Source of the DNA: Segetibacter sp.
GTDB lineage: Bacteria > Bacteroidota > Bacteroidia > Chitinophagales > Chitinophagaceae
DNA length: 34,865 bases
Direction: 5' to 3'
Assembly: GCA_028288485.1 (NCBI GenBank)
Contig: JAQBNO010000020.1
Coordinates: 1-34,865 of the forward strand
Positions within the stretch are counted from its first letter, which is position 1. Every line of letters starts with the position of its first letter. Under the pieces are notes generated by a model that made no database searches, was not told where the DNA came from, and was given only the letters and a program-made list of their open reading frames with translations. Shown here one piece after another: positions 314-31,839 of this stretch. Made by a program: the position numbers and the translations under genes.

Positions 314-2938
314 TTACCTGATTAGCTTTGTAATTATATAGGGTGTCTCCTTATCAAGGTCGGGGAAAATCGTCCCATTGCTATTATTATCCATTACTTC
401 CAGGTAATACATAAAATCCCATTTGGGGCTAATTTGTTCTGCAGGAACTACTACCTGGAATGCATCTTTTTCCCCTGTCGGAAGCATTGCCAATACCCGG
501 TAATCCTGTTCCTGGTTAACACTACGATACCGTAACCGAACCCATTTTATTCCCAGCGGAGCATTTACTTTTACATTTACAGTAATAGGTTTACCAACCG
601 GAGCACTGGTAACTGGTTGGTGAATGAAGTTAAATTTTGTATCAAAATTGGTATCCTGCCCAACTTTATACTGCGGAGCTGACTTCACTGAGGCCGGGGA
701 CACGAAATTCTGCCTTTTTTGTTCAAGCTTTGCGAGCCCATTTTCCAAAGCAACCAGTTCATCTTTCCAGTTTCCGCAAAGGTCTGCAACACGAACGCCC
801 ATCATTAAATCGTCTGCATAAACATCTCCTGCCGCAGTTACAATTTGCCGCCAGGCTTCTATTGCACTGGTTTCATAAGCAATTGCATTTTTGAGTGCTG
901 CTAAGTCCTGTGTTCGTTCAAAGAGGCAATAACTAACTGCTGCAGGTATTCGGCGTGAATGATAAAGGGCAAGACCGGATAAGATCCTGAGATCTGTAAT
1001 CGTTGAATTAAACTCTTTGTTGCGGTTATTTCCTATTGCTTTTTCAGCCTCGGCAATTAAATTATTAATCTCGGCTGCTGTTTTCCGGAACCATACGCTA
1101 TTTGCTCCGGGCCGTAGCTTTGCTGTCTCCCCGCCTTCCAGCAATAATTTAGCTTCTTCATCAAAGGTCAGGAATTGCGGCAGGTCGGTAAGTTGGGCTT
1201 TTGCAAAAGAAGGCAGATCTCCGAGACGCTGCTTTTCAGCCCATCCCCTGGTGGTTGGAAAACTACTGTAAGGGTAAGAAGAGGAAATAATTCTTGGCAG
1301 AACCCAACTTGCCTTGTGTAACGCAGCTTCAACAGACGGCGCAGCCTGTTTGCCAAACCTGCGTTCGAATTCTCTTTTCCAAACCTCAGCAGGTGTTTGA
1401 GGATTATAGCCGATGCGGCCGAACACCTGGAAAAAATGCCAATACCGTTCAAACTCGTAATCGTAATAACGATAGGGAGGTTTCAATAAATCAAAGGGCT
1501 TTGCATCGTGTGGTTGTGCTTCCATTTTGGTTGCAAGAGGTTCATTCACTTCGTAACCATCACCGTTATAAAGATGTGTGCTTTGTGCAAATCGCCGGGC
1601 AAATTCAGGGTCTCCCCACAATAGTATTCTTGAGGTGCCTCCATTCCAGAGCCGCCAATGCATTTTATATTGCTGGGGGTAGCGTAACATGTCGCTATAA
1701 CTGTGTCTGCGGGCACTTTTTTCGGGGTTAATCGCTGTTGGATGAAAAGGCAATCCCATTTGCTCCATCCAGTATTTTGTAGTAATCCTGAACGGTACGC
1801 CGATATCAATCGCACTTTGTATTACAGGTTCCGGTAACTCTTTTGCACGCAGATCGAGGTGCAGGTTAGGAACGGTTGCTTTTAGCATCTTGAAAACGTC
1901 GGACCAGAAACTCTCCTGTTCATTCTCCTTCAAACCCGATTCGTTGTGCATTCGAAATTGAATTGCGTCGAGACCGGGAACCATTTTTACAAATTTTGCA
2001 AGAGCTGTTTTATTGTAACTGATGAGGTTCTCACTGTTTACGCCCCATACAAGACCGGGAACAGGTTTGTCGGGCGACGTTGTTGTTCCTGGAATACCAC
2101 CACCCTGCACTCCACCCCTGTAAATGTGATCCCAGATGCCTACTGTAAACTTAATTCCTCTTTCATGACACATGTCAATCAAACGATTAATAGCAGCAAG
2201 GTTGCGTTGCTGTTCCTGTGCAGTAAGACCCACCATGCGAACGCCTGGGTATCCTTCAACATCGAAAAAGTAGGGATAACACGGGGCGAGGAATCCACCA
2301 TTCTCGTACCCAAAAATTACCACCAGGGAGTTAAACCGGTTTTTCGCCAGCATATCCAGGTACCTCGCCCAATATGCCTGGTCATAAAACCTGCTTTCCC
2401 AATAGGCCCGCTGCATTGTATAAATAGAGATTGCCCGAACACTTGCATCAGGTTTTTCGGTAATTTCTTTGACCTCAGCAAGCGGTGATTTTGAATCGGC
2501 ATTCCAGCTAACCCTGTCTGCTACATCCAAAAGGCCATACATGAGTCCTCTATCATCAGTCCCATTGATCACCCACACCCTCTTTTTTTGCCAATTGGTC
2601 TTCCAGATTGTGAGCGCTTCCGGTACGTCGGGTAATGTACGGTTGGCATCTTTCAACAGGCGGGCTGCCTCACCACCCCCGACAGACAAACCCGCAACAA
2701 TAACCAGTTTGCCTTTGGCTTCTTTTATAGTGCCGACTTGTTCAAATACTATATTTTTTGCTTTCAATGCATCAGTTAGTTTGGTAACGCCACTAGTAAC
2801 TGAAACGCCGGGAGTTTGGTCGGTAACAATAGAAACCTCAGGAATGTCGGCAGCTCCATAAACAGTTGAATTGAGAATGAGAAGCAATAAGGATAATCGA
2901 AATAGCAACGACCTTTTTAAGCGAGTTTTTATTTCCAT
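314..2938 (-). CDS. Secreted GH67-like glycoside hydrolase, large subgroup, 874 aa
   Basis: Predicted exported carbohydrate-active enzyme. The ATG at 2938 is chosen over an upstream in-frame start at 3013 because it opens directly onto a Sec signal peptide (MEIKTRLKRSLLFRLSLLLL, cleavage near YGA-A at about 29). Residues 33-145 are an alpha/beta domain ending in GTDDRGLMYGLLDVADRV. This is the signature of the N-terminal domain that precedes the barrels of GH67, GH20 and GH115. A TIM-barrel-like region follows, with FRMHNESG around Glu333, the best candidate for a catalytic acid, and later a WGDPEF motif and NEPLA. A helical region (GRIGYNPQTP) comes next, and the last 100 residues look like a beta-sandwich with YRSVNQ. 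It resembles the 912-aa neighbour along its length, including the C-terminal module, from which it lies 143 bp downstream. Substrate unknown; a uronic-acid side chain is a guess from GH67. Confidence 0.8.
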   Translation of the reverse strand: MEIKTRLKRSLLFRLSLLLLILNSTVYGAADIPEVSIVTDQTPGVSVTSGVTKLTDALKAKNIVFEQVGTIKEAKGKLVIVAGLSVGGGEAARLLKDANRTLPDVPEALTIWKTNWQKKRVWVINGTDDRGLMYGLLDVADRVSWNADSKSPLAEVKEITEKPDASVRAISIYTMQRAYWESRFYDQAYWARYLDMLAKNRFNSLVVIFGYENGGFLAPCYPYFFDVEGYPGVRMVGLTAQEQQRNLAAINRLIDMCHERGIKFTVGIWDHIYRGGVQGGGIPGTTTSPDKPVPGLVWGVNSENLISYNKTALAKFVKMVPGLDAIQFRMHNESGLKENEQESFWSDVFKMLKATVPNLHLDLRAKELPEPVIQSAIDIGVPFRITTKYWMEQMGLPFHPTAINPEKSARRHSYSDMLRYPQQYKMHWRLWNGGTSRILLWGDPEFARRFAQSTHLYNGDGYEVNEPLATKMEAQPHDAKPFDLLKPPYRYYDYEFERYWHFFQVFGRIGYNPQTPAEVWKREFERRFGKQAAPSVEAALHKASWVLPRIISSSYPYSSFPTTRGWAEKQRLGDLPSFAKAQLTDLPQFLTFDEEAKLLLEGGETAKLRPGANSVWFRKTAAEINNLIAEAEKAIGNNRNKEFNSTITDLRILSGLALYHSRRIPAAVSYCLFERTQDLAALKNAIAYETSAIEAWRQIVTAAGDVYADDLMMGVRVADLCGNWKDELVALENGLAKLEQKRQNFVSPASVKSAPQYKVGQDTNFDTKFNFIHQPVTSAPVGKPITVNVKVNAPLGIKWVRLRYRSVNQEQDYRVLAMLPTGEKDAFQVVVPAEQISPKWDFMYYLEVMDNNSNGTIFPDLDKETPYIITKLIR

Positions 2939-3081: not shown

Positions 3082-5820
3082 TTAAACCTGCCGTACAACG
3101 AAGTAGGGCTGATTGGTTAAATCAGGGTTGAAACCAGGATATAAGGACGCAGATGCAGGTGCTTCCTGCAACTCAAAATAATATTCGAGGGGATATTTAG
3201 TGTTGGTATAAGCTGCGGGAATTGTTGCACGATAACTCTTACCCGATACCTGCATTTCAGCACTTTGATATCTTTCACCCTGGTTTACATGCCGGTAAAA
3301 TAATTTGACGGACCTGGGCATTTTCTGAGCAGACAACTCTAAAATGAGGGGTTGATTGTTACTAAACTTTTCCGGTTTACTGTGGGTGCAGTTCGCCAAT
3401 AAACGCTTTGGTCTTCCCAGCGCTTCCTGCACTGCAGTATTCACTAATTCCTGTTTTGAAAGATCATTGCTCTTAGCCTCATCCAGCTTTTTTGCCATAT
3501 AGGAGATATCCTCGTCCATTGCCGGCAATCGATCCAGCCAATGCCCCCGCAGATGCGGTCTTTCACCAACAGTAATATCTGGTTTATAAACATCTTTGGC
3601 ATTATTGGCGAGTTCTGCAAAATATCCCCTTGCACGCTTATAGGCCTTCAGCGATTCCTGCAGGGCAGCTCGGTTACCGCTTTGTTCGTATAACGCATAC
3701 AGAACACCTGAACGAAACTTAGCTCCGAAGAAACGCCCCAACAATACCTGCATTGATACGTCTATCGCCATCCTTCTGAATTCAGGACTTTTGCTGTTTT
3801 GTGTTTTTGCTTCTGCCTGTTGCAGGTGTTTGGCTGCGGCGTCGGCATAATCTTCTATCCACTGTGCAGTTTCAATGGGGGTGTACTTGCCGCACCTTTC
3901 ACCCTTTAACACCTCCCGGGCATAATCATTAATACTAAGAAAGAGTTGCGGATCAAGAGGGGTTACGTTGCCAAAAACTTTTGGTGCAGGTGTGTCTGAA
4001 TAGGGATGTTTGATATTAGGATCTGCAATTGGATGATTAGTATAGATTTCAGGCCAATAGGTATTATTACCGGCAGAAGTTCCATGCGCAGTCAAAACGA
4101 TAGGAAGTATACGAGTGGCATTTGCCAAAGCTTGTTCTGTTGAATCTGCCGCAGGTCCATACTGTTTACGAAGTAAACGCTTCCAGACGTCCGGCTCGGA
4201 CTGCGGATTGTATTGTAACCGTCCAAACACTCTTAGCGTATAAAGATACTTCTCCCAGTCCCAGCGAGGGCTTAAGGAAGCATCTGCATAACCACAGCGG
4301 TCTCCTGCAATCCCAGATCCTCGGCGACCTTTAAATGACAGCGGTTCCATAAGTTCCACACCTGCACTGCCACAAAAACTAAATGCTCTTGCATGTGCCG
4401 CTGCCGTTAATGGATCTCCCCATAACAATAGTCGTTGAGTACCTGGCCAAATGCGATGAATTATTTTATAAGGCCTGTCTTCTTTTAAAAGGTCACCATA
4501 ACCATAGCGCAGAAAACTACGTGATCCTTCGCTCAGGTTCATTAAAACTGAAGTTTTCTTTTCGGGTTTTGGTACTTCAAGTTCGCGAATGTCGGCCTGG
4601 TGATATGGCATTCCCATGTGTTCGGCCCAGTACTTTGGTGAAATAACAACGGGCATTTTGGTTGCAACCGCCGAATCCATCATTGTCTGGTCCATTCCTT
4701 TTGAGTGCATATCGATCTCCACCGTTCTGCCACAGGTTGCAACTCCCTCAAATACTGTTCTCCAAAACTCGTAACTGCCTTCGTTTACACCACTCTCGCC
4801 GTGAACGCGGAAAGTTACTCCACTAATAGCCGGGCAGGCTTTTAAAAGAGCACGAACGGCATCGCGACAGTAAGGACCGTGATTTTCCTTGGTTATTCCC
4901 TCGTTGGTGTAATTAGGGTTGGGACTATTGAGCCACTCATAACCATGCATCCAGAGGCCCAACTGAAACTGCATGCCCCTCGCAACTGTTTGTTCACTGA
5001 TAAATTTCAGCATTGCAAGATTGCTGTCACGTTCTGCATCGGGCAATTGAGGTACTCGTACGTTGTAGCCCGGAACGGATAAAAAGAACGGGTAAGCAAA
5101 AAGAAAGTATCCGTCTGTAACATTCCGAAGAAAGTCGTACCCGATGCCAAAGCTGAGATTAAAGCGATTATAACGCTGGGTGGCCAACATGGTCAAATAC
5201 TTAGGCCACATTTCACGATCATTGTACCACGGCTTGTCTTCCACATCGCTGGTAAAAAGCCTGGTTAGACTTCTTATTTCATTAGCTGGCCGTTCAACAA
5301 TTGGTTTTTGAACGTTCAAAGAAGCTAAAGGCTGAGCGCTATTCTGTACACGGTCAGCCAATTCGAGTAAGGCGTAAACAAGGCCACGTTCATCGTGTCC
5401 TGCAGCCAGTAATACTTGTTTTCCTGCTGACTTTAACGAAACAAGGCCAAGGGCCTCCGGTACAGCAGGTACGCTTGTTTTTGCTTCTTTAAGTAACTGA
5501 GCAGGAATTGAAGCTTTTGTAGCTCCTGCAACTATACATAAGTTTCCGGCAGGTACTTGCGCCAGCTTTGTAAACCTTTTAACTGCAATGCCCTGGGATG
5601 TCATCGATTCCTCCAGCTCCTTTACGGCCCATAAAACCGGCCCCGATTGAGCAATACGATCACCAGGGTCGGAAACAATGGAAACGCCCTGGGCTTTCAA
5701 ATCATTTATACTTGCGAATGGCATACCTAAAGTGGTAATACCTGTTATTTTTATAAAGTGACGCCTGGTTACGCCATTTGTATCTATTCCTGTATTATTA
5801 TTAGATTCCTGTTTTTTCAT
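3082..5820 (-). CDS. Tat-exported GH67-like glycoside hydrolase, large subgroup, 912 aa
   Basis: Second member of the large hydrolase subgroup. The N-terminus has a twin-arginine motif, TRRHFIK at 18-24, followed by a weakly hydrophobic stretch to about residue 44. This suggests folded export by the Tat system, whereas its paralogs here carry Sec signals. Residues 45-160 form the GH67/GH20-type N-terminal domain, closing with GHDERGLVYALLELADRV. The barrel region holds FRVHGESG with Glu342 as the candidate catalytic acid, then LLLWGDP and ELMEPLS, and a helical part with GRLQYNPQS. The C-terminal 90 residues match the beta-rich module of the 874-aa protein (YRHVNQ). The ATG at 5820 starts immediately before the Tat motif. 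A copy of the dispersed 60-bp repeat lies about 100 bp upstream. Exact family and substrate are not known to me. Confidence 0.8.
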   Translation of the reverse strand: MKKQESNNNTGIDTNGVTRRHFIKITGITTLGMPFASINDLKAQGVSIVSDPGDRIAQSGPVLWAVKELEESMTSQGIAVKRFTKLAQVPAGNLCIVAGATKASIPAQLLKEAKTSVPAVPEALGLVSLKSAGKQVLLAAGHDERGLVYALLELADRVQNSAQPLASLNVQKPIVERPANEIRSLTRLFTSDVEDKPWYNDREMWPKYLTMLATQRYNRFNLSFGIGYDFLRNVTDGYFLFAYPFFLSVPGYNVRVPQLPDAERDSNLAMLKFISEQTVARGMQFQLGLWMHGYEWLNSPNPNYTNEGITKENHGPYCRDAVRALLKACPAISGVTFRVHGESGVNEGSYEFWRTVFEGVATCGRTVEIDMHSKGMDQTMMDSAVATKMPVVISPKYWAEHMGMPYHQADIRELEVPKPEKKTSVLMNLSEGSRSFLRYGYGDLLKEDRPYKIIHRIWPGTQRLLLWGDPLTAAAHARAFSFCGSAGVELMEPLSFKGRRGSGIAGDRCGYADASLSPRWDWEKYLYTLRVFGRLQYNPQSEPDVWKRLLRKQYGPAADSTEQALANATRILPIVLTAHGTSAGNNTYWPEIYTNHPIADPNIKHPYSDTPAPKVFGNVTPLDPQLFLSINDYAREVLKGERCGKYTPIETAQWIEDYADAAAKHLQQAEAKTQNSKSPEFRRMAIDVSMQVLLGRFFGAKFRSGVLYALYEQSGNRAALQESLKAYKRARGYFAELANNAKDVYKPDITVGERPHLRGHWLDRLPAMDEDISYMAKKLDEAKSNDLSKQELVNTAVQEALGRPKRLLANCTHSKPEKFSNNQPLILELSAQKMPRSVKLFYRHVNQGERYQSAEMQVSGKSYRATIPAAYTNTKYPLEYYFELQEAPASASLYPGFNPDLTNQPYFVVRQV

Positions 5821-6236: not shown

Positions 6237-7694
6237 TTATTCATATCCCGGGTTTTGCGGGAATACGGTGCGGTTGTTTATTATTTCCATCTGGTTTTGA
6301 GGAATAGGGAAAACAAGCATGTGCGGTTTCATTCCGAAAGGCTGCATTACACTTAGCGCCCTGCCTGTTCTAACAAGGTCGAACCAGCGATGCCCCTCTA
6401 AATACAATTCAAACCTGCGTTCGTCGTAAATTTTTTCACGTGTTTCTGCCTGTGAGAGGTTCGTATAAGCAGGCACGCCGGCACGGGCTCTTACCAGGTT
6501 TAAAGTAGTAAGTGCATCACCGGTTTTTCCGTTCTCGTTTAATGCTTCAGCATACATCAATAAAACATCGGCATACCGCGTAACTTTCCAGTTTGCCCTG
6601 CTGTCGTTTGCTTTTGGTATGGGAGTGAGGTATTTTTTTGTAAATGAACCGATACCTGTTGTAGAAATGGGTATAAAAACGCCGTTCCTGGTAATACCGG
6701 TGGCTGCAGTGATATCCTTACGCAGGTCGTTTGGATTAAATGCAGCAAATAAACCTTCTGCGGGGCAGCCCTGGTCGTTGCCACCTGCAGGCGGCAAGCC
6801 GTACATTTCGGCCATAGCGGTTGCTAACACACCAGCCCCCTGGAAACTAAGCGAAAAATTGGTGGTAAAAATGCTTCCTTCACCTATGCCTTGCTCATAT
6901 TCGATATCGAAGATGTATTCGCTATGGTGTTCATCTTTGCTGTAATCGAACAGGTCGTTAAAGTTTTTCAACAACGAATATCCCATGGTGGTTACTTCTG
7001 CTAATTTAGCTTCGGCTTTTGCAAAGTCTTTACGCGTTAGATATACTTTTCCAAGCACAGCCTTAGCAGCACCCCTTGTAGCTTTTCCAACATCGGCCCC
7101 TGCATATTTCAATGGTAATTTAAGTTCGGCGTCGAGCAGGTCCTTAACGATTACTTCGTCGTATACCTTATCAACCTTTTCTCTTCCTATCAGGTAAGCC
7201 TCATCAATAGAAACGTTGGTAGTAACCATCGGAACATCGCCGAAAATTCTCACCAGATTGAAGTAAGCAAGCGCTCTCAGGAATTTCGCTTCACCAACAT
7301 ACTGGGCTTTATTTTTAACTACAGCGGCATCTGCCTTGTCAATTTTACTTAAAACATTATTTGCGCGTGTTATAACGCTATAATAGTTCGACCAGGTGGT
7401 TCTAAGAATACCGGCATCGTTATTAAGAATAAATTTGTCAACATCGGATGCAGTGAGGTTACTTACAAGACCGCTTTTTGTATCGTCGCCCCGCAGATCA
7501 CCATAATACCAGTGATTTCCAAACTCGTTTTGATAAACTGCATAAATACCAAGAACAGCATCCTGGAAGTCTTTATCGGTTGAATATAAAACATCGGTAC
7601 TTACAGTAGATTCAGGATTTATCCTGATGAAATCTTTACTGCAGGAAATCATTAGTATTGAAGCGAATATTATTATCGTGATTATATTTTTCAT
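6237..7694 (-). CDS. SusD/RagB-family outer-membrane nutrient-binding lipoprotein (first pair)
   Basis: Surface glycan-binding partner of a SusC channel; SusD proteins cap the barrel and capture oligosaccharides. The sequence opens with a lipoprotein signal, and the lipobox LMISC puts the lipidated Cys at 18, followed by SKD. Family hallmarks are visible: NYYSVITRANNVL near 110, AKFLRALAYFNLVRIFGDVP near 135-155 (the SusD-like N-terminal helical repeat domain), then RYADVLLMYAEALNENGKTG and ERRFELYLEGHRWFDLVRTG in the C-terminal SusD/RagB domain. It ends in FPQNPGYE, as does the second SusD here. Its 485 aa is within the usual range. It starts 31 bp after the SusC stop, so the two are surely co-transcribed. 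The ligand cannot be read from the sequence. Confidence 0.95.
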   Translation of the reverse strand: MKNIITIIIFASILMISCSKDFIRINPESTVSTDVLYSTDKDFQDAVLGIYAVYQNEFGNHWYYGDLRGDDTKSGLVSNLTASDVDKFILNNDAGILRTTWSNYYSVITRANNVLSKIDKADAAVVKNKAQYVGEAKFLRALAYFNLVRIFGDVPMVTTNVSIDEAYLIGREKVDKVYDEVIVKDLLDAELKLPLKYAGADVGKATRGAAKAVLGKVYLTRKDFAKAEAKLAEVTTMGYSLLKNFNDLFDYSKDEHHSEYIFDIEYEQGIGEGSIFTTNFSLSFQGAGVLATAMAEMYGLPPAGGNDQGCPAEGLFAAFNPNDLRKDITAATGITRNGVFIPISTTGIGSFTKKYLTPIPKANDSRANWKVTRYADVLLMYAEALNENGKTGDALTTLNLVRARAGVPAYTNLSQAETREKIYDERRFELYLEGHRWFDLVRTGRALSVMQPFGMKPHMLVFPIPQNQMEIINNRTVFPQNPGYE

Positions 7695-7725: not shown

Positions 7726-10700
7726 TCAAAATCCAACATTTAACCCTACTGTAAGACTTTTAGGTAAAGGATAGTCGTTTAAGTCTATTCCGGGAGTCAG
7801 AGAATTTCCCGAGTTGCTTGAGTCTGGATTCCAGGAAGTATATTTCGTGAAAATGAATGGGTTGGTAGCATTGATGTAAACCCTGGCGGAATTTAATGTA
7901 AGTTTCTTAGAAATACTTTCGGGTAATACATAACTCAAGGTAATGTTGTTGATCCTCATGTATGTTCCGTTATCGATCTCCCTTTGACTGCTTTCGCCCC
8001 GAATGTTACCGGTAGGAGCATCGTTGGGCCTTGGGGTATTACCATCTCCGGGGTTTTCGGGAGATTTCCAGTAATTGTTGGATAAAGCCAACTGGTTAGT
8101 ACGTGCCCTGGTGGATAAGTTTGCTCCTACCCTTGTTTTGTTAATCACCTGCGCTCCTTTTGAGCCCTGGAGGCCGACATTCAAACTTAAGCTGCGGTAA
8201 GAAAAACGGTTGGTCATGCCATAATAAAAATCAGGATAAGGACTGCCCATAATGGTCTTATCGAGGCTATTTATTATACCGTCGGGCTTTCCGTTAGGTC
8301 CACTCACATCTACAAATCTTGTATCTCCCATACGTGAGCGGTTGGTTGTACCGGGAGCGAAAATTGGTCCGGCGTCTAATTCTGCCTGGTTTTTAAAGAC
8401 ACCGTTGGTTAACCAGCCATAAAACATTCCTATCGGCATGCCGATTTGTGTGATATTGGCATTGGTAATAATAGGGTCGCCGGAAGGTCCTAAGCGAACA
8501 ACTTTATTTTTATAAGTGGAGAAGTTGAGATCAGTAGCCCATTCAAATTTCCCCTCTAAGTTTGTGGTGCTTAGCACAAACTCCCAGCCCGTATTTCTAA
8601 CCTCACCTATATTTTTTAAAGCGGTATTGAAACCGGTTATTGCCGGAACGTTTACATTCAATAATAAACTTGAATTATTGGATTTAAAGTAATCGACCGT
8701 AACGTTAATTCTTCGCTTTAAAATACTTGCGTTCACACCTGCGTTAAACTGTTTTTGCTTCTCCCATGTTAATACAGGGTTAGCCAATCTTCCGGGTGCG
8801 TACCCTCCTACAGCGGTATTTCCCAACACATATTTTTCGTATATAGCAGTAGCGATATGTTCGTAATTACCTATATTGTTATTCCCGGTTTCGCCATAGC
8901 TGGCGCGGAATTTCATATCGTTTATTAAACGAATGTTCTTAAAAAAGTTTTCATCAGATACACGCCAGGCAACTGCTGCCGAAGGGAAAACGCCGTACTT
9001 TCTTTCACTTCCAAAACGCGACGACCCATCGGTACGTATAGATGCGGTTAAATAATATTTACCACTAAAATTGTAGTTTGCCCTTGCCAGGTATGACACC
9101 ATTGCCCACTTATCTCTTGTTGATGTTCCATCTGTAATTATTCCACTAACTGCGCTCAGTGTAGGAACAAGATTATTGGAAAACCGGTCGCTGTACAAAT
9201 AATTGGCTTCCAAAACATCTTTTTGTGCAGTATAACCAACTACACCTGATATGTTGTGTTTATTCAGGCTTTTGTTATAATTCAAAGTATATTCTGCAAG
9301 CCAGTTCTTATTGAGAGAAGATTGATCACTTGCATAAGCCACCTCATTTAGAAAGGCCGGGATTTTTGGACGGAACTTGCTTTCACGGGTACTCATCATA
9401 TTTGCCCCTATTAACACATTAAACTTCAAGTCATTGAAAATTTTATATTCGGCATTGATATTTCCTATCAACCTCATTCCGCTCCTCGGATGTTTAATTT
9501 CGTTAACGAGCGCCAAAGGATGATAAAAATTTCCGGTAGCAGCCAGACCATTATAAGAGTAATAGTCGCCGTTGGCATCATATACAGGATAGTAAGGGGT
9601 AACAGCCATTGCGCTTCCCAAAACATTTTCGTTAGGTCCACTGGTTAAGCCGCTTGCAGTAACAAGGTTCTCTTCGGTATAGGAAGGGTTTAGATTAACC
9701 CTCACTGATAGTCTTTTTGAGACCTGCGCATCAATATTTGCCCTTACCGAATACCTGTTGAAATTTGTATTCCGGATAATTCCCTGCTGGTTAAAATATT
9801 CTCCACTTATAGCATACCTAACGTTGCTGCTGCCTCCGTTAATCGCTATCTGGTGTTGTTGCTGGGGTGCAGTGCGTAATACGAGGTCAAGCCAATCAAT
9901 ATCAGTCGTATTTCTTCCGGCCAGAACATCCATAATTATATCCGGAACTGCTAATCTCCATGTATTTCCCGGCCCCGAAACATTATTTCCTGCGTCAATG
10001 TTCCTGTTTTTAACACCATCGTGAAAGTATTGCGCCTCTTCCTTTGCATTCATCATTTTTGGCTTTAGCGAAACCTGCTGCAAACCATAATAAGTGTCGT
10101 AGGTAAGGTTAGTTCTGCCCTGCTTACCTCTCTTTGTTGTAATAATGATGACGCCGTTTGAACCGCGCGAACCGTAGATAGCAGTAGCTGAAGCATCCTT
10201 GAGAATATCCATACTCTCAATATCATTTGGATTCAGCGTTTGAATGTCTCCAACGGGAAAGCCGTCGACGACATATAAAGGTTCAGAACCGGCAGATATA
10301 CTACCGATACCTCTTATCCTAATTTGTGGTGCGGCTCCGGGTTGTCCCGATACCGGTTTTACCTGCACACCTGCAGCTTTACCCAACAGCGCCTGGTCTA
10401 CCCGCGAAACTGCAAGATCCCTAATATCTTTACCATCGACAGAACCAACTGCACCTGTCAGGTCTTTTCTTCTTTGCGTACCATAACCTACAACCACCAC
10501 ATCATTTAAGTTATTGCTTGATTGCTCGAGGGTGAGGGTTACGTTGGACTGATTATTAACGCTGATTTCTCTTTCCATGTAGCCTACATAGGAAATAACT
10601 AATGTAGCATTGGCTCTTGAAAGGTTTATCGAGAAGCTTCCATCCTCCTTCGTTACTGTTGCATTCGAGGTTCCCTTCTCAGTAACACTCGCTCCTGCAA

Positions 10701-21151: not shown

Positions 21152-21209
21152 GTACAAGTGAGTGACACAACGATGTTGATTAAAGTTATCGTGTTGGTCC
21201 AATAAAAAT
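21152..21209 (+). repeat. Dispersed 60-bp repeat upstream of the 732-aa hydrolase gene
   Basis: Begins GTACAAGTGAGTGACACAAC and runs through ATTAAAGTTATCGTG to CAATAAAAATT. A worn opposite arm (CTCGTTGCATCCTGTAC, about 21116-21132) lies just to its left, so this may be another inverted pair with a short spacer. It overlaps the artificial upstream extension of the 732-aa reading frame. Confidence 0.65.
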
Positions 21210-21309
21210 TCTTCATTTTGCCGGCGTTGAGTTGCAAGTAGTGAGTGCTTGAGCAATAATTCTTACTCTACTCACGCAGAAAACTCGCTACTGACGACTC
21301 TGCACTCCC

Positions 21310-22749: not shown

Positions 22750-22775
22750 ATTGTTATCGTATTGAAGTGATGATA

Positions 22776-25700
22776 TCAAAAACCAACTGTCAAACCTATA
22801 ATAAGGGTTTTTGGTATCGGGTAGTTATTCAACTCGTTACCTGGGGTTAATGCATTTTCGCTGTTACTTACGTCTGGATTAAAAGCAGTGTATTTTGTGA
22901 ACAGGAAAGGATTTGTAGCATTTGCATATACTCTTAAAGAGCTTAAAGCCAGCTTTTTAGCAATCCTGTCGGGCAGCAGGTAGGCTAAAGAAATATTGTT
23001 TACCCTAAGAAATGAGCCGTTATCGAGCCAGAACTGGCTGTAAGTTCCACGGATATTACCGGTAGGAGCATCATTAGGTCTTGGGGTGACACCGTCACCG
23101 GGATCTTGTTCTGACTTCCAATAATTATTTGAAAAAGCATATTGCCTGTAGCGTCCTCTTCCTGTATTACCTGATGCCCGTGATAAATTAAGTATTTCAT
23201 TCCCCTGTGATCCCTGTAGTGTGATACTTAAACTAATTTTATCGTAAGAAAAACGGTTGGTCATTCCATAATAAAAATCAGGGTAGGGTGAACCCATAAT
23301 CGTTTTATCAAAACTATTGATAACGCCATCCGGCTTACCTGAAGGCCCGCTAATATCTACAAACCTGATATCGCCTACCCTTGAGCGATCGCCGGCACCG
23401 GGATTAAAAATGGGGCCTGCATCTAACTCGGCCTGTGTTTTAAAAATTCCGTTTGTTAACCAGCCATAGAACATGCCGATCGGCTGACCGATCATGGTAA
23501 CATTACCGCCAGAATAAATCGGATCGCCGGTAGGCCCTAATTTCACTACTTCATTTTTGTAGGTAGACAAATTAAAGTCGGTGGACCAGTCGAATTTTTT
23601 AGAGGCTATGTTCGCAGTACTCAGCACGAACTCCCATCCCGTATTTTTTACTTCGCCAATATTTTTAAGAGCCGTACTAAAGCCTGTAACATCAGGAACG
23701 TTTACATTCAACAACAAATCGGTATTTCGTGACCTGAAATGGTCTATTGTGATATTAATTCTTCTCTTGAACAAGGCTGCATCAAGGCCAATATTAACCT
23801 GCTTTTGCTTCTCCCAGGTTAACAACGGGTTTGCGAGTCTTCCGGGAGCAAAACCTGCAACAGCGACACCGCCCATCGTATATCTTTCATAATTGATGGT
23901 AGCATAATGTTCGTAATTGCCAATGTTATTATTACCTGTTTCGCCGTAACTACCCCTTAATTTCAGTTCGTTGAGAACACGAACGTTTTTCAAAAAATTT
24001 TCATCCGAAATTCTCCACGCTACCGCTGCTGAAGGAAAAACGCCGTATTTTTTTTCTGCGCCAAAACGGGAGGAGCCGTCGGACCGAATAGATGCAGAAG
24101 CATAATACTTACCTTCGAAGTTATAGTTAAACCTCGCCAGGTACGAAAGCATCGACCATTCACTCTGGTCAGAAGTACCGTTTGTAATTATCCCACTTAC
24201 TGCACTTAATGTAGGAACGAGATTATTCGGGTACCTGTTACTTGTAAGAGAATTTGACTGAAAGGTTTCTTTTTGGCTGGTATAGCCTGCTACAGCCGAA
24301 AAGTTGTGTTTGTTAATTGTCTTATTATAGTTAAGGGTATATTCAGAAAGCCAGCTATATAACATGGAAGAATTATCGGTTCCTACAGCAGGGTCATTAA
24401 AAAAAGCAGGCAGCGATGGTTTAAATAGCATGCCTTTCGAGTTCATATAATTACCACCGAGCAGAATATTAAACTTTAGGTCATCCGTTATTGTATAAGC
24501 TGCATCAAGGTTTCCTAAAAATCGCATTCCTTTGGTGGATGCCATTGTTTCTCTTGCAACAGCGAGGGGATTCTGGAAATCTCCCTGGGCTGCCAGGCCG
24601 GAGAAAACGGTGTAATTCCCGTCTTTATCAAGCAAGGGGTAAAAATTATTAACAGATAGTGCGGTAACAATACTACCGGTTGTGGTTTTATCCGGATTAC
24701 CGCCTGTAACAGGAATGGCGCTCTTTTCGGTAAAAGCCGGGTTTAAATTTACTCTTACCAGCAACCTTTGCGACAATTTGGCTTCAACATTTGCCCTGAA
24801 CGAATAACGGTTGAAGTCGCTGCCGATTACTATTCCTTCCTGTTTAAAATAGCCACCGCTTAAAAGATACTTAACATTCTCACTTCCTCCTGTAGCCGTT
24901 AACTGGTACTGCCTTTGAGGAGCAGTTCGCATAACCTGGCTTAAAGCATCAACGTCGTAGGTATTCTTCCCCGACAGCACGTCTAAGATATCCTGGGGAA
25001 CCGGACGCCTCCATGTTTCCACCGGTCCTGAAACATTGTTTCCTTCATCGATATTCCTGTTTTTAATTCCGTCATAATAATATTGCGCCTGTTCCCTCGC
25101 ATTCTTCATTTCAGGTACTTTCAGTACTTTCTGCCAGCCGGTATAAACGTCTAGCGAAACTACCGCTTTACCCGCCCTTCCTTTGCGGGTATTAATAATA
25201 ATTACGCCGTTAGAACCGCGTGATCCGTAAATTGCCGTAGCTGAAGCATCCTTCAATATATCCAGGCTTTCAATATCATTGGGGTTTAATGTTTCAATAT
25301 TTGAAGTAGGAAAACCGTCAACCACGTACAAAGGACCGGTTCCTGCCGAGATACTTCCAATACCCCGAATATTAATCTGCGGTGCAGCTCCCGGTTCTCC
25401 CGAAACAGCCTTTACCTGAACGCCGGCTGCCTTACCTGCTAATGCCTGGTCTACCCGGGTTACTGCTAATTCCCTTATATCCTTACTTCCTACTGAGGCA
25501 ATGGAGCCTGTGAGATCCTTTCTTCTTTGCGTACCATATCCCACCACTACAACCTGTTCTAACGAAGCAGTTGTTCCTTTCATCTTAATGACTAAAGATA
25601 AAGTTGCGTCGCTTTTAATGTTATAACCCGCTAAGGTTTGTGTCTCGTAGCCGACAGTAGAAAATGTAAAAGTGTAAGGGCCACCTGAAGTTACCCTTGA

Positions 25701-25925
25701 AAAGGTAAAAACACCCGAACTATCGGTACTGGTTCCCGAGGTAAAATTGGTTGCGGTGTTCCTGATAACAACCGACACGCCTGGTAAAGGTGAACTGGCC
25801 TCATTTTGAACAATGCCTTTAACTGCGCTGGTATTTTGCGCACCTGCATTTAAAAAAAAGAAGATAAAAAAAAGGAACAACAGGGCAAAAATATTGCCCT
25901 TGGATTTAAGTAGATTAAATCGCAT
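22776..25925 (-). CDS. SusC/RagA-family TonB-dependent transporter without STN domain (second pair)
   Basis: Outer-membrane importer of 1049 aa. The signal peptide (LFLFFIFFFLNAGAQ, cleavage near 30) leads directly into a carboxypeptidase-regulatory-like domain (about 33-115; VKGIVQNEASSPLPGVSVVI), then VVVGYGTQRRKDLTG, a plug with DILKDASATAIYGSRGSNG, and a barrel ending GLTVGF. There is no STN domain, so unlike its paralog it should not signal through FecR by itself. Long stretches are shared with the first SusC, for example PYPDFYYGMTNRFSY, which indicates an old duplication of the whole SusC/D pair. It is the first gene after a 1.1-kb gap and probably heads the unit SusC-SusD-732-721-726. 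Confidence 0.96.
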   Translation of the reverse strand: MRFNLLKSKGNIFALLFLFFIFFFLNAGAQNTSAVKGIVQNEASSPLPGVSVVIRNTATNFTSGTSTDSSGVFTFSRVTSGGPYTFTFSTVGYETQTLAGYNIKSDATLSLVIKMKGTTASLEQVVVVGYGTQRRKDLTGSIASVGSKDIRELAVTRVDQALAGKAAGVQVKAVSGEPGAAPQINIRGIGSISAGTGPLYVVDGFPTSNIETLNPNDIESLDILKDASATAIYGSRGSNGVIIINTRKGRAGKAVVSLDVYTGWQKVLKVPEMKNAREQAQYYYDGIKNRNIDEGNNVSGPVETWRRPVPQDILDVLSGKNTYDVDALSQVMRTAPQRQYQLTATGGSENVKYLLSGGYFKQEGIVIGSDFNRYSFRANVEAKLSQRLLVRVNLNPAFTEKSAIPVTGGNPDKTTTGSIVTALSVNNFYPLLDKDGNYTVFSGLAAQGDFQNPLAVARETMASTKGMRFLGNLDAAYTITDDLKFNILLGGNYMNSKGMLFKPSLPAFFNDPAVGTDNSSMLYSWLSEYTLNYNKTINKHNFSAVAGYTSQKETFQSNSLTSNRYPNNLVPTLSAVSGIITNGTSDQSEWSMLSYLARFNYNFEGKYYASASIRSDGSSRFGAEKKYGVFPSAAVAWRISDENFLKNVRVLNELKLRGSYGETGNNNIGNYEHYATINYERYTMGGVAVAGFAPGRLANPLLTWEKQKQVNIGLDAALFKRRINITIDHFRSRNTDLLLNVNVPDVTGFSTALKNIGEVKNTGWEFVLSTANIASKKFDWSTDFNLSTYKNEVVKLGPTGDPIYSGGNVTMIGQPIGMFYGWLTNGIFKTQAELDAGPIFNPGAGDRSRVGDIRFVDISGPSGKPDGVINSFDKTIMGSPYPDFYYGMTNRFSYDKISLSITLQGSQGNEILNLSRASGNTGRGRYRQYAFSNNYWKSEQDPGDGVTPRPNDAPTGNIRGTYSQFWLDNGSFLRVNNISLAYLLPDRIAKKLALSSLRVYANATNPFLFTKYTAFNPDVSNSENALTPGNELNNYPIPKTLIIGLTVGF

Positions 25926-27046: not shown

Positions 27047-29200
27047 TTAACGATAAAGACAAAGCAACATTTCGAAATCTGCAACCTTTGGAACGATGCA
27101 TTCAACCCACCCATCCGTTTGCTTAAACTGGATTGTTGTGCCTGATCTCAACAGTTTAATTTCTTTTACCGGTTTCAAAGGTTTGAAACGGAGCATTGTA
27201 TTATAAATTGAAACAGGTTCAAGTAATGCAGCACCTATCTGTCCTGAATGGTTCAACATCCCTATCCATTCAAAAGCGCCATTTCGATTTGACAGGCGTG
27301 TCATTTCAATTAAGGGTGAAGCGTCGGTAACAATTGAACTTTCAACTTTTAAAAGGTTTTTAAGAGCAGATGCAAATAGGGCTTTATGTGCGTAATGTCC
27401 TTTAAAATTGTATTGCGAACCTATTTGCCAGGGTATGAAAACCGATTTTCCTTTTCCGAAATTGTTATTGATTATTCCGGGAAAACCTGTTATTTCAGCT
27501 TCTGTATAATAAGCTTTCTCGGGCGGTCCAAACATGGTTGCGGGAAGTAGTTGGAGGTAACCTTTTGCACCAGTACCAACTTTGCATTTTAGAAAGTCGC
27601 CATACATCATCATCAAATCAAAATCTTCAAATTCCTTTTTACCAAGTGCAGATTTATCAGTTGGCGTTACTTTAAGATAAGTCGATTTTGCCTGCTTAAA
27701 AGTTTCATAACCTGGAAGAACGCCAAGCGCTTCCAATCTTATTTTGTTTGTCGGCGTTCCAATTCCATCTTTTGTAGACGTGAAACCTGTAGATAAAATC
27801 TTACCGCCATTTTTTACATAATTATCAATAATGGCTATAAACCTTTCATCCATATCACTCACATCTGCCAGGATAAGGGCCTCATACTCTTCGAGTTTTT
27901 TGGGCGCCCTCGCATTTCCCACGGCGGCAGGTTCCAGCACATCAAACATAGTGTGCTCTTCCGACAACAGTTTTATCAGTCCCTTATATTCGTCTTTTGA
28001 ACCTCTTACAAGTGCAACCTTACTAACAGGCTGAAGGTTAGCAAACAACTTTTCATTGGTCTTATGAAAACGATAAATATCATTCATGATCGGGATAAAC
28101 CGCCTGTCTTCCTGGTTGGCGAGGGTACCTATTACATACACATCGAGTGGCGCACCGTTTAACATATTTTCGAGCACCCAAACCCGTGATATGTTTGGCG
28201 AAGTGGCAATATGGCGATAGCCGATAGCCAAAAAATATTGAAGTAAATTGCTGGGAGTTCTGTCCTTATACGAACCGATAACACGCTTCACATGGTCGGT
28301 AGAAAAATAATTCCATTCATATTCAGCGGTCAGCCACGAACTTGATTCACTTCGGGTAAGATCGACACCTGCATCGGTATAGGTGCAAATAACCAGCTTT
28401 GGATTTTGTTTTTTTATAAAGTTTCCAACTTGCGTAAAAAGCTGTTCTGATGTGGTTTTCCTGAATGCATTATACCTCCTGTAAACCGGGTCGCTCATGT
28501 CTTCTTTTACAGGAAGCGTCATGCCCGTTGAATCATTAAACCGCTTTCTACAATTCGTGCATTGACAAATGCCATGATATACCCCGCTATAATCTGAAGT
28601 GGTATAACCGGGCATATTAAAAAAGATCCCGTCAAGGTCATAATTGTCGATCGTCTCTTTTAAAATGTCGAAAGTGTATTGTTGTTGGTAGCCGCCATTT
28701 ACGCAAGTGTGTACCTGCCCGTTATAATTTACATTTTTATCATCTGTTCCTACATACAGCCACTCAGGCTTTTGTGCCGCCAAAGTTTCGTTGATCTTGC
28801 TTACGTCAAAACGCCCTAAAACCCGAATTCCCTTTGCATGAAGCCTCTTTAATAGCGTACCAACAAGGTCGCCTTTCATAAAAGTATTCTTATAATGAAA
28901 AGGAAGCCTGGTAGGATAGTTAGCCACGATACCTCCAACGTTTAATAACACCACATTTGCCGATGCCGCTTCTATTGACTTCACATATGCATCTACATCC
29001 ATCAGCGCATCTATTTCACGTAAGTTTGTTTGTATTAGCCGGATGGGTGTACGGTTCCACCAGGTGGTATCATAGCGACCGGGATCAATAGCAGGCAACT
29101 GAGCAAAGCTGAACTTGCTTATTAAAAGTGTAGTGATAATACCGAACACGCGGGCGAGGTGTATTTTTCTAAAGGTTCTCTTAGCAGGTCTCATTTTCAT
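27047..29200 (-). CDS. Secreted GHL6/GH42-like putative glycoside hydrolase
   Basis: Predicted exported hydrolase of 717 aa. The N-terminus is a basic Sec signal ending ISKFSFAQ at about 34. Residues 50-400 look like a TIM barrel of the hypothetical glycosyl hydrolase 6 type. LDGIFFNMPG lies at about 189-198, followed by the family-like cysteine motif C-x-C-x-x-C (Cys212, Cys214, Cys217; GICQCTNCRKRF), which could bind a metal. Residues about 395-610 resemble the class-I-amidotransferase-like trimerisation domain of GH42 beta-galactosidases (VALVRGS, EALILADVSDMDERF, NYVKNGGKILSTGF). A small beta domain ends the protein. It is unrelated in sequence to the six GH67-like proteins and stands alone between a 332-bp gap and the 1.1-kb gap. 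An activity on alpha- or beta-galactoside-like linkages is only a guess. Confidence 0.78.
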   Translation of the reverse strand: MKMRPAKRTFRKIHLARVFGIITTLLISKFSFAQLPAIDPGRYDTTWWNRTPIRLIQTNLREIDALMDVDAYVKSIEAASANVVLLNVGGIVANYPTRLPFHYKNTFMKGDLVGTLLKRLHAKGIRVLGRFDVSKINETLAAQKPEWLYVGTDDKNVNYNGQVHTCVNGGYQQQYTFDILKETIDNYDLDGIFFNMPGYTTSDYSGVYHGICQCTNCRKRFNDSTGMTLPVKEDMSDPVYRRYNAFRKTTSEQLFTQVGNFIKKQNPKLVICTYTDAGVDLTRSESSSWLTAEYEWNYFSTDHVKRVIGSYKDRTPSNLLQYFLAIGYRHIATSPNISRVWVLENMLNGAPLDVYVIGTLANQEDRRFIPIMNDIYRFHKTNEKLFANLQPVSKVALVRGSKDEYKGLIKLLSEEHTMFDVLEPAAVGNARAPKKLEEYEALILADVSDMDERFIAIIDNYVKNGGKILSTGFTSTKDGIGTPTNKIRLEALGVLPGYETFKQAKSTYLKVTPTDKSALGKKEFEDFDLMMMYGDFLKCKVGTGAKGYLQLLPATMFGPPEKAYYTEAEITGFPGIINNNFGKGKSVFIPWQIGSQYNFKGHYAHKALFASALKNLLKVESSIVTDASPLIEMTRLSNRNGAFEWIGMLNHSGQIGAALLEPVSIYNTMLRFKPLKPVKEIKLLRSGTTIQFKQTDGWVECIVPKVADFEMLLCLYR

Positions 29201-29496: not shown

Positions 29497-29532
29497 AAAC
29501 TCGAGAAGCACCCTCTAATTGCAGACTTTTTA

Positions 29533-31839
29533 TCAATCTCTGAAAGGCTTTTCGGTTGTATTTTTTGTTTGGTATTTAATCGTGCCTGGTTTCCAATTTC
29601 TTGCTATAGTAATGTCTGCCTCTACTTTCTTAATCAGTTCAGGAATATTTACAAAACCAACACGGTTATAAAGAGCCGGTTTATATTGAGAATCGTACAC
29701 TTTGGCATATTGTGCCCAATGCTTCTTTGCTTCCTGGAGGAAGGCTATTGCCTTGCTGCGATCGCTTTCGTTGGAAAACTGGTCGAACAACGCAAGACTA
29801 CATGCAGCTTTCATTTTTGCTGCGTAGTAATTGCCAATATGAGCAAATGCTTCAATATCACCGAGGGTTTGATCAAGCTCGGTAAATGAACCGACCTTGC
29901 GCGCCGGTAAAGCTTTTAAACCCGACAAAGCCTCTGCAGAAAGACGGGTAAGTGTATCGGCGACAGCCATTGGAGATTGAAGAGAATCAGTCTTTCCTTC
30001 ATGGTGGTATTTAGCCCAGAGATAAATATTCCGGATATTGCTACCCGGCATGGGCTCGCGTTCGATATAATCTGCTACGGTAAAAAAGCCCTTATGTGTA
30101 GGGTGACTTATATTGGCCTCAGGAAACCATTTCAAATCAATATCGCCCCAAACATAACGGGTGATCCATGGAAAGATCATCGACGCCGATGACCAGGGTT
30201 TGTACAATTTCTTAACATCTATTGCCGGTAGCCGGGTTTGCAGGGTTTTTATAAAGATGTCATCAGGGATATTGGGGTTATAACTTAACCGCCCCCAAAG
30301 CATGAACGAATACCACTGTTTTTGCATAACCAACTGATGCTCCGGGCCTCTTGTGAGGTAGTCGCGGCCCCAGTTATAACCGTCGGGTCCCATATAATAA
30401 CCGGCGATTTTTTCCGGTTCGGGAATATCCTTAATAAACTGGCGGGCGAAGTTGTTATTGGCCCAGCGAAAACTATAAATATCGTCGTTCCTGACCGTTA
30501 ACCAGCTTTTGGTTTGTTGAGAAAGCAAAGGCATGGCCGCATCAACAAATGGTGGATTTGTAATGGAGTACATGTGTGCAATCGCATACTTCAGGCTCAG
30601 ATCAAAAGGACCGGCATATTCGCGAAAGGCATCTTTAATTTCACTAAGGGAAGTCTGGTGAAAGCGATGAATAAGGCGGAAGTTGCGTTTAGGTTCTTGT
30701 TTAAGTGCATCGCGAATACCTTCTCCGTAGGTGCGCCATAACCATTTTTCGTTTGCATATTCGCCTGTTGATTTTCTATTCATCGCCTCCCCTGCTGTTA
30801 TGCCGATTCCGGCAAGAAGAGGGTAAGTGTGCACCATTTCACGAACTGCAGCACGAAAATAACTAATGGTGGTATCGTTATCCTGCCTGTTTGTAATGCC
30901 ATGTTTGCCTTCGGCGCCATTGGTAAAAATATTCCAGGTAAACACATACACTTCAACCCCGCGGTCGTTAGCCATTTGCATAACTTCTTTCCAGAAAGCG
31001 ATCTTCTCGTCGATGGTTATCTTCTTAACGACTTCAACATTCTGGAGAAGGTGTGGACGAACAAAGTTTACTCCCTGGTGGCTGTAACTGTCGTCAAATT
31101 TTTCTTTTGTGCGCCAAACATCGTTTAAAGCAACTTCAGGAAATTCAGGAATTTTAACCATAGAAGGGAAAGGATGAAGGCTCCACAAGCTTAAAACGTT
31201 GTACCTGTTTTTAGCCATTTCATCTAAATAGGTTTCCCAAAATTCCTTTTCCCAAACGTTTGGGATATTTTGTTGAGCGGCGTCACTCGGATCAGTATAA
31301 CTCGGTGTTCTTAAATCGAGTGGTATATTAAATTTTATTCCTCTCCGGTCGAGGTAAGGTTTGTTGTCGGAGTTAGCGATCGAATTAATTGTTTGCAATC
31401 GAAATGCCTCCGCAATATCCAAACTTCCATACATTGCGCCGGTTTTATCACCTGCTAAAACATAAATATTTTTTTTGTCGCCATTGTTTTTTACCCTGAT
31501 AGCATAACACTGCCAGCCCAGGTTTTCAGGCATTTTCAAATTCTCATCGTTCGCAGTTTTAACGGATGTTGCAGAGTCTGAAATGATCCTGATAACCATT
31601 TCATCGTTCGCCTTACTATTTAAAAAAGAGGAACCGGTTACTATATATTTTTTTTCAGTAGCGGCTTTCCTGATTTCGTTGCTGGCGTACATCAATTGAT
31701 TTTGGGTAGCAGTAATTTGAATGTTTACCTTTTTTTGCTGCTGAATGTTTGGCTTTTTTTGTTGTGCAAAAGTTTGCTCGAGGCTTGCTGTTGAAACAAC
31801 CAATAGCAGTATTAATAATTTCAAAATTTTTATTTTCAT
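29533..31839 (-). CDS. Secreted GH67-like glycoside hydrolase, 768 aa, divergent member
   Basis: Exported hydrolase-like protein, most distant of the small subgroup. The ATG at 31839 is preferred to an upstream in-frame start at 31977 because it opens a Sec signal (MKIKILKLLILLLVVSTAS, cleavage near FAQ-Q at 26). A Lys/Gln-rich linker (27-38) precedes the N-terminal domain with LAGDKTGAMYGSLDIAEAF. The barrel has RRGIKFNIPLDLR, LSLWSLHPFPSMVK, TWNIFTNG and GIGITAGEAMN (Glu351). It differs from the other three at two conserved spots: Asn-Asp-Asp (451-453) in place of Asn-Glu-Asp, and GPDGYNWGRDY (Asp486) in place of GSE-Y-IPAKDY. An extra loop of about 30 residues lies at 240-275. It is a lone gene upstream of the GHL6-like gene and ends 332 bp before it. 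Confidence 0.8.
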   Translation of the reverse strand: MKIKILKLLILLLVVSTASLEQTFAQQKKPNIQQQKKVNIQITATQNQLMYASNEIRKAATEKKYIVTGSSFLNSKANDEMVIRIISDSATSVKTANDENLKMPENLGWQCYAIRVKNNGDKKNIYVLAGDKTGAMYGSLDIAEAFRLQTINSIANSDNKPYLDRRGIKFNIPLDLRTPSYTDPSDAAQQNIPNVWEKEFWETYLDEMAKNRYNVLSLWSLHPFPSMVKIPEFPEVALNDVWRTKEKFDDSYSHQGVNFVRPHLLQNVEVVKKITIDEKIAFWKEVMQMANDRGVEVYVFTWNIFTNGAEGKHGITNRQDNDTTISYFRAAVREMVHTYPLLAGIGITAGEAMNRKSTGEYANEKWLWRTYGEGIRDALKQEPKRNFRLIHRFHQTSLSEIKDAFREYAGPFDLSLKYAIAHMYSITNPPFVDAAMPLLSQQTKSWLTVRNDDIYSFRWANNNFARQFIKDIPEPEKIAGYYMGPDGYNWGRDYLTRGPEHQLVMQKQWYSFMLWGRLSYNPNIPDDIFIKTLQTRLPAIDVKKLYKPWSSASMIFPWITRYVWGDIDLKWFPEANISHPTHKGFFTVADYIEREPMPGSNIRNIYLWAKYHHEGKTDSLQSPMAVADTLTRLSAEALSGLKALPARKVGSFTELDQTLGDIEAFAHIGNYYAAKMKAACSLALFDQFSNESDRSKAIAFLQEAKKHWAQYAKVYDSQYKPALYNRVGFVNIPELIKKVEADITIARNWKPGTIKYQTKNTTEKPFRD

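What the first reader, a model, noticed from the sequence alone, without database searches (positions are those of the whole stretch)
314..31839. Six GH67-like exported hydrolase paralogs in one two-importer PUL
The genes at 314, 3082, 14231, 16564, 18889 and 29533 all show the same order: export signal, alpha/beta domain ending in G-D-x-R/V/T-G-x-x-Y-G, a barrel with R-A/G-I-K or R-A-I start, a Gly-Glu or Glu-Ser-Gly motif, a WG motif, and a helical region with G-R-L/I-x-Y-N/D-P. They fall into a large type (874 and 912 aa, with an extra C-terminal module) and a small type (721-768 aa). The N-terminal domain is known from GH67, GH20 and GH115, but I cannot place the barrels in a characterised family. 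So many paralogs in one locus suggests a substrate with many similar but distinct linkages, or a new family.
Basis: partly seen in the sequence, partly recalled or inferred. Interest (0 to 1): 0.75.

Follow-up and report, generated by a model that had tools for sequence, protein, structure and literature searches.

The report
Six GH138-like enzymes in one PUL
A bacterial genome carries six very divergent copies of a rare sugar-cutting enzyme type beside two matching importers; they fall into three groups outside the one characterised family, four of the six lack one of that family's key residues, and some sister gene clusters also carry genes for using glycolate or glycerate, which gives a testable clue to an unknown glycan.

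Summary
In detail: six large minus-strand ORFs form one homologous family. The closest characterised family is GH138 (BT0997/BPa0997, alpha-1,2-galacturonidase of rhamnogalacturonan II): all six hit its profile at 49-151 bits (cut-off 1300), and the model of paralog D matches the GH138 crystal structure (TM 0.75) far better than GH67 (0.46). They are not GH138 members but three deep clades beside it: A+B, C+D+E, F. A and B keep both glutamates matching GH138 E294 and E361; C-F have no Glu at the E361 motif (0 of 47 relatives) but share two other acids (47 of 47). A true GH138 lies on another contig. The two SusC/SusD pairs are about 61% identical and belong to a rare importer subfamily (4 of 393 genomes searched, own included). 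8 of 17 stretches with that importer also carry small hydroxy-acid genes (LctP permease, glycerate kinase, hydroxyacid dehydrogenase, malate synthase, LutABC or GlcD-like oxidase), against 0 of 20 control stretches; yet only 4 of 29 loci of D relatives do, and the module also occurs alone. Best reading: a PUL type for an acidic glycan, possibly feeding glycerate/glycolate metabolism. Substrate unknown.

The parts
314..3013 (-). Paralog A: large type, A+B clade (874 aa from the ATG at 2938), C-terminal beta domain in the model
3082..5820 (-). Paralog B: large type, A+B clade, 912 aa, twin-arginine-like N-terminus (TRRHFIK, by eye)
6237..7694 (-). SusD1 (PF07980/PF14322)
7726..11160 (-). SusC1, TonB-dependent receptor with STN domain
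11389..12579 (-). FecR-type anti-sigma factor
13078..13668 (-). ECF sigma factor
14231..16411 (-). Paralog C: small type, C+D+E clade, 726 aa
16564..18729 (-). Paralog D: small type, C+D+E clade, 721 aa; modelled (pLDDT 84, pTM 0.88)
18889..21237 (-). Paralog E: small type, C+D+E clade, 782 aa as ORF; Asp at the position of GH138 E294
21310..22779 (-). SusD2
22776..25925 (-). SusC2, TonB-dependent receptor
27047..29200 (-). GHL6 (PF14871) protein with a weak GH42 middle-domain match, distant relative of alpha-L-fucosidase 6tvk
29533..31977 (-). Paralog F: F clade (768 aa from the ATG at 31839)
32191..33327 (-). Glycerate kinase (PF02595; TIGR00045 389.6 bits, cut-off 168.45)
33426..34349 (-). 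Tartronate semialdehyde reductase-like (best TIGR01505, 259.5 bits, below its cut-off of 340.75)

Best explanation
The window is a double PUL. Two sister SusC/SusD importers take up related acidic oligosaccharides, and six exported GH138-fold TIM-barrel glycosidases trim them. SHOWN by computation: all six are homologous to GH138; two were modelled and match its fold (D well, A weakly); they form three clades outside it. A/B keep a Glu at both GH138 positions E294 and E361. C-F have no Glu at the E361 motif, keep an acid at E294 (Asp in E) and share two further acids. Both importers belong to one rare subfamily that recurs with these enzymes and, in part of the loci, with hydroxy-acid genes. 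INFERRED: A/B are exo-uronidases with GH138-like catalysis. C-F are active hydrolases with a re-arranged acid pair and so perhaps a different stereochemical course. The GHL6 protein removes an alpha-L-fucose-like cap. Breakdown ends in a C2/C3 hydroxy acid (glycerate here, glycolate in sister loci) that enters central metabolism through glycerate kinase or malate synthase.
For: GH138 profile hits for all six. BPa0997 is the top PDB sequence hit for the four paralogs searched, F, C, B and D, though B only at E 0.025. Foldseek for D: 6hzg/6hze/6hzf first, E about 1e-29 to 1e-31, TM 0.73-0.75; for A TM 0.51-0.54. Profile-profile probability 99.9-100% of each group to GH138. Tree: GH138, A+B, F and E each one side of a branch, SH-aLRT 99-100. 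E361 motif: Glu in 23 of 23 GH138 and 9 of 9 A/B, 0 of 47 C-F. Acids at D-numbering 402 and 435 in 47 of 47 C-F. SusC1/SusC2 61% and SusD1/SusD2 60.6% identical; the subfamily stands at 46-69% beside these enzymes in L030, L038, L042, L048, L052/L126 and L118, other SusCs in the fetched loci at most about 35%. L118 repeats ECF-FecR-SusC1-SusD1-B-A. Hydroxy-acid genes: L038/L042 malate synthase, GlcD-like oxidase, LctP; L052 LctP and a D-2-hydroxyacid dehydrogenase; L146 malate synthase beside LutABC-like genes; L148 LctP and glycerate kinase. 8 of 17 stretches against 0 of 20 controls. The own genome has no glyoxylate carboligase over cut-off (best 321.9 bits, cut-off 711.2) and no GarL hit, which argues against those two known routes to glycerate.
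Against: No activity or substrate is known. Nine of the 17 importer stretches have no acid gene, L118 and L048 among them. Of the 29 loci found with D as query (L020-L048) only 4 (L020, L030, L038, L042) have one of the acid genes searched; L111-L114 (C/D relatives) and L115-L117 (F relatives) showed none. An LctP-hydroxyacid dehydrogenase-glycerate kinase module also stands without this importer in the stretches fetched from the own contig C8 and from G005, G006 and G009, so its place in a PUL may be chance capture. The association is partly circular because several bait proteins came from the target loci. The KY motifs were aligned to GH138 in three comparisons but not in the C/D/E against A/B comparison. 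A's model is weak (pLDDT 68, several barrel loops under 50).
Confidence: 0.55

Rival explanations
1. The PUL degrades an ordinary uronate-rich plant or algal polysaccharide, and the glycerate/glycolate genes are unrelated neighbours from core metabolism.
For: LctP-hydroxyacid dehydrogenase-glycerate kinase modules occur without the importer in stretches of G000:C8, G005, G006 and G009. Acid genes are in only 4 of 29 loci of D relatives, and L118 and L048 have none. UxuA-like genes sit near family members in L024, L037 and L120 and mandelate-racemase-family genes in Haladaptatus.
Against: Different combinations recur in loci of the importer subfamily (LctP + GlcD-like oxidase + malate synthase; LutABC-like + malate synthase; LctP + dehydrogenase + glycerate kinase), against 0 of 20 control stretches, all from G492.
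Confidence: 0.35
2. C, D, E and F are catalytically dead paralogs that serve as binding proteins.
For: No Glu at the motif of GH138 E361 (0 of 47); the E-type proteins also have Asp for E294 (3 of 3).
Against: Three positions stay acidic (Glu or Asp) in 47 of 47 members, and C-like and D-like forms are kept together in Cecembia and Cognataquiflexum.
Confidence: 0.12
3. All six are GH138 alpha-galacturonidases acting on rhamnogalacturonan II.
For: GH138 is the best profile and fold hit.
Against: 49-151 bits against a cut-off of 1300. A true GH138 (1551.8 bits) sits on another contig beside a GH28 gene. Four of six have no Glu at the E361 motif. By Pfam the only other glycosidase-like protein among the 15 window ORFs scanned is the GHL6 one.
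Confidence: 0.05
4. They are GH67- or GH115-type alpha-glucuronidases.
For: Weak PF03648 matches, F reaching that cut-off in the genome scan (24.3 bits); GH67 is the next fold after GH138 for D and GH115 for A.
Against: GH67 TM 0.46-0.47 against 0.75 for GH138 on the D model; the genome's strong GH67N hit (85.3 bits) is on contig C64.
Confidence: 0.05

Closest known systems
GH138 (BT0997, BPa0997; PDB 6hze, 6hzf, 6hzg)
   Same: Domain order, TIM barrel, helical C-terminal region; Glu at both catalytic positions in A and B
   Different: About 20% identity over the D model; far below the family cut-off; no Glu at the E361 motif in C-F; separate clades; no other pectin glycosidase family seen by Pfam in the window
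GH67 and GH115 alpha-glucuronidases
   Same: N-terminal alpha/beta domain and barrel architecture
   Different: Much weaker structural match than GH138
GHL6-type alpha-L-fucosidases (Mfuc3; PDB 6tvk)
   Same: GHL6 with a GH42-type middle domain, as Mfuc3 is described in a passage of PMC4723247
   Different: Weak sequence match of the window protein (E 1.4e-9 to 6tvk, mainly the C-terminal half); its activity is unknown
SusC/SusD polysaccharide utilisation loci
   Same: SusCD pairs, ECF sigma/FecR regulation, exported glycosidases
   Different: Part of the sister loci join the importer to glycolate/glycerate uptake and oxidation genes; paper searches listed nothing that by title or start of abstract describes this

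Membership tests
GH138 | Score over the NCBIfam NF049878 cut-off (1300 bits) | tested here: not met
   49.2, 62.5, 141.4, 151.3, 121.2 and 107 bits for A, B, C, D, E, F
GH138 | GH138 fold | tested here: met
   D model TM 0.75 to 6hzg. A model TM 0.51-0.54 at low confidence. B, C, E, F not modelled
GH138 | Glutamates E294 and E361 (catalytic role recalled; an E361S chain is named in the PDB) | tested here: not met
   Met in A and B (E294 with a one-residue register shift). Not met in C, D, E, F: no Glu at the E361 motif; E294 is Asp in E
GH138 | Cleaves GalA-alpha-1,2-Rha of RG-II chain A | not testable with these tools
   Activity of BT0997 from passages of PMC7939467
GH138 | Falls within the GH138 clade | tested here: not met
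   Tree of 63 of 79 members, quick method
GH67 | PF03648 N-domain over its cut-off (24.3 bits) | tested here: inconclusive
   F: 24.3 bits, marked over, in the genome scan but 20.1 in the protein scan; C 19.5, E 15.9; none in A, B, D
GH67 | GH67 fold as best match | tested here: not met
   Second to GH138 on the D model; lower still for A
GH115 | GH115 fold as best match | tested here: not met
   4zmh E 3.4e-13 after GH138 at 1.6e-22 on the weak A model; not in the 50 rows shown for D
Polysaccharide utilisation locus | Adjacent SusC/SusD pair with exported glycan-active enzymes | tested here: met
   SusCD pairs and enzymes; export judged by eye
GHL6 (PF14871) | Score over the Pfam cut-off of 35 bits | tested here: met
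   90.7 bits for 27047-29200; activity not testable

The most novel reading that the evidence does not exclude
These loci are an undescribed PUL type for a glycan that carries glycolate or glycerate residues. C-F form a new glycosidase family on the GH138 scaffold with a re-assigned catalytic pair that acts on the bond to the hydroxy acid, and LctP then imports the released acid.
Probability: 0.22. Interest if true: 0.8.

Novelty: new variant of a known kind. Interest (0 to 1): 0.53.

Why it matters
GH138 has one characterised activity known to me. Here the same scaffold has radiated into three further clades, two of them without a Glu at one of its catalytic positions: a natural experiment in how a glycosidase may change mechanism. 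The hydroxy-acid genes in part of the sister loci give a concrete, testable hint at the ligand of an importer subfamily seen here in the window's family, Cyclobacteriaceae, Spirosoma and Pontibacter.

Tried and rejected
Aldarate route (GarL) and glyoxylate carboligase route as the source of glycerate: not found over cut-off in the own genome. RG-II PUL: no supporting enzymes in the window. A phylum-wide search with alignment A2 gave near full-length C/D/E- or F-type matches in 7 genomes besides the own, among 395 searched (two candidates per genome scored, so a lower bound; three of the seven are F-type). Family of G266: 2 of 92; family of G274: 1 of 2. A as bait: 3 of 148 genomes, own included. 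SusD2 as bait at E 1e-100: 4 of 393 genomes, own included, and 1 of 395, the own (four candidates per genome scored). Paper searches that listed nothing usable on the GH138 mechanism or on a glycolate/glycerate PUL. Papers seen: passages of PMC4723247 and PMC7939467; all others only as search listings. The GH138 structure paper is not held, so the catalytic roles of E294 and E361 are from recall, as is the list of substrates named under next steps. Apiose/apionate, gellan and ring-opened uronate polymers were considered as substrates; nothing here tests them.

Dropped rows: alignment A1, used to place the motifs, held one row that is not a family member (L034:6421-8583, a RecQ-like helicase by eye); it was left out of the structure alignments, the tree and the counts. 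Four of 83 collected rows were dropped before counting (L010 and an L035 ORF as non-members, L043 and L067 as fragments). The tree used 63 of the remaining 79 after thinning. In the tally, L052/L126 are one locus, L146/L147 overlap, and L038/L042 come from related genomes; controls are 20 stretches of one genome, one of which holds a GH138-like hit of 26% identity.

Full report
OBSERVATION. The six genes are real: ORFs of 721-912 aa on the minus strand, homologous in every pair. GR[LI]xY[ND]P is in 6 of 6 and in none of 9 other large window ORFs (0 of 12000 shuffles). By coordinates and strand the genes fall into three runs in transcription order: TSR-GlyK-F-GHL6; SusC2-SusD2-E-D-C; ECF-FecR-SusC1-SusD1-B-A. 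That these are operons is an inference from spacing and order.

WHAT THE SIX ARE. Apart from chance-level rows, Pfam gives only N-terminal hits: PF02838 in C, D and E (E below its cut-off), PF03648 in C, E and F (below cut-off in the protein scan; F reaches 24.3 bits and is marked over in the genome scan), and none in A and B. NCBIfam gives one family for all six, NF049878 alpha-D-galacturonidase, at 49.2-151.3 bits against a cut-off of 1300. The four paralogs compared with PDB sequences (F, C, B, D) all have BPa0997 on top, B only at E 0.025; A and E were not compared. AlphaFold2 on D (32-row alignment) gave pLDDT 84 and pTM 0.88. Foldseek put the five GH138 chains first (E about 1e-29 to 1e-31, TM 0.73-0.75, 19-20% identity), then GH67 (E about 1e-14, TM 0.46-0.47), GH84 and GH20. 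The model of A is weaker (pLDDT 68, pTM 0.63), again with GH138 first and GH115 next. The other four were not modelled, and the second structural aligner was not available.

NOT MEMBERS OF GH138. Profile-profile comparison of the A/B, C/D/E and F groups with GH138 gave probabilities of 99.9-100%. A tree of 63 of 79 members separates GH138, A+B, F and C+D+E; the groups tested (GH138, A+B, F, E) are each one side of a branch at SH-aLRT 99-100. It was the quick method, and the program warned of long branches that meet, so the order among the clades is not claimed. The own genome has a true GH138 at C184 (1551.8 bits) next to a GH28 and an MGH1-like glycosidase gene.

CATALYTIC POSITIONS. Counting along the printed BPa0997 alignments puts E294 in LGE and E361 in KYNGE. 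The E361 motif K[YF]xxE has Glu in 23 of 23 GH138 and 9 of 9 A/B relatives; at the same place C/D/E relatives have Ser (40 of 40, K[YF]NWS) and F relatives Ala (7 of 7). The E294 position is Glu in all 79 rows but the three E-type proteins, which have Asp; in A/B it is shifted by one residue. In C-F, positions 402 and 435 of D are Glu or Asp in 47 of 47. How sure is the placement: MAFFT lined up the KY motifs of all groups. HHalign lined up KY in A/B, C/D/E and F against GH138, Glu on Glu for A/B, but put a gap after KYN in C/D/E, shifted F by one, and did not line up KY between C/D/E and A/B. The MAFFT alignment did not line up KY either. In none of these does a Glu of C-F fall on E361. That 402 or 435 takes over catalysis is inference.

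IMPORTERS AND SISTER LOCI. SusC1 and SusC2 are 61% identical, SusD1 and SusD2 60.6%. The same subfamily, at 46-69%, stands beside family members in L030, L038, L042, L048, L052/L126 and L118; other SusCs in the loci fetched by then are at most about 35% identical. L118, from another genus of the same family, repeats ECF-FecR-SusC1-SusD1-B-A, and L048 repeats SusC2-SusD2 with E and D. The importer is rare: 4 of 393 genomes near the own, own included, and only the own among 395 sampled over the phylum. The window's family is probably Chitinophagaceae: contigs of the same-genus G007 and same-family G016 have the same length and ORF layout as named records L020 (Chitinophagales bacterium) and L036 (Parafilimonas terrae).

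HYDROXY-ACID GENES. Window: glycerate kinase and a tartronate-semialdehyde-reductase-like gene beside F. Own C94: ECF-like, FecR, SusCD, GHL6, LctP, xylose-isomerase-like barrel, D-2-hydroxyacid dehydrogenase (below every NCBIfam cut-off shown for its L075 homolog), F-like, an unknown propeller-like protein and a second GHL6. L038/L042: SusCD, C- and D-like enzymes, malate synthase, FAD/Fe-S oxidase, LctP, DUF386; the L038 malate synthase matches malate synthase A 3cuz at E 3e-48. With SusD2 alone as bait, 3 of 9 newly fetched stretches (L141, L146, L148) carry such genes. Over 17 stretches of the importer type 8 have at least one acid gene, against 0 of 20 stretches of 20 kb from G492. Limits: several baits came from the target loci, stretches differ in length, two pairs overlap, and all controls come from one genome.

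AGAINST THE ACID LINK. With D as query, only 4 of 29 loci (L020, L030, L038, L042) have LctP, GlcD-like, malate synthase, glycerate kinase, TSR or dehydrogenase hits. L111-L117 showed none. Of 9 full-length LctP genes in 25 genomes, 4 lie beside the importer or these enzymes and 5 do not; those five sit beside the hydroxyacid dehydrogenase, four of them with glycerate kinase as well. So the module also lives on its own.

OTHER CONTEXTS. Haladaptatus plasmid L049 has one E-type and three A/B-type genes among four annotated mandelate-racemase-family genes. Sinorhizobium L050 has a B-type gene among ABC transporter genes. These fit acidic-sugar catabolism but name no substrate.

VERDICT. Real, and partly re-interpreted: three GH138-sister clades in a double PUL of a rare importer subfamily. 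Membership of GH138 fails on score, on clade and, for four of six, on a catalytic position. That they work as glycosidases of acidic glycans is likely; the glycolate/glycerate link is suggestive and open.

Noticed in passing
window 34582-34737: 6.8 copies of a 23-base tandem repeat (CCTTCGACTACGCTCAGGGTAAA) near the end of the window.
   Followed up: no
window 33360-33415: Short AT-rich repeats (ACGTGAAA...) between the glycerate kinase and reductase genes. No Rfam family reaches its cut-off in the window.
   Followed up: no
L075:16000-17121, L052:2618-3730, L030:941-2038, L147:7458-8531, L150:2-2341: A protein of about 370 aa (propeller-like by eye) recurs beside these enzymes, importers or acid genes. 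Two copies had no Pfam hit, one had no PDB hit.
   Followed up: partly
window 3082-5820 and L110: B and its ortholog start with a twin-arginine-like motif by eye, unlike the other paralogs; no signal-peptide program was run.
   Followed up: no
L150 (own genome C8): Locus without SusCD in the 14 kb fetched: two propeller-like genes, DUF386, LctP, malate synthase, hydroxyacid dehydrogenase and glycerate kinase.
   Followed up: partly
L053:7204-8910 (own genome C117): A 568-aa protein whose residues 26-192 match only the C-terminal part of the GH138 profile (NF049878 positions 723-888): perhaps an exchanged accessory domain.
   Followed up: no
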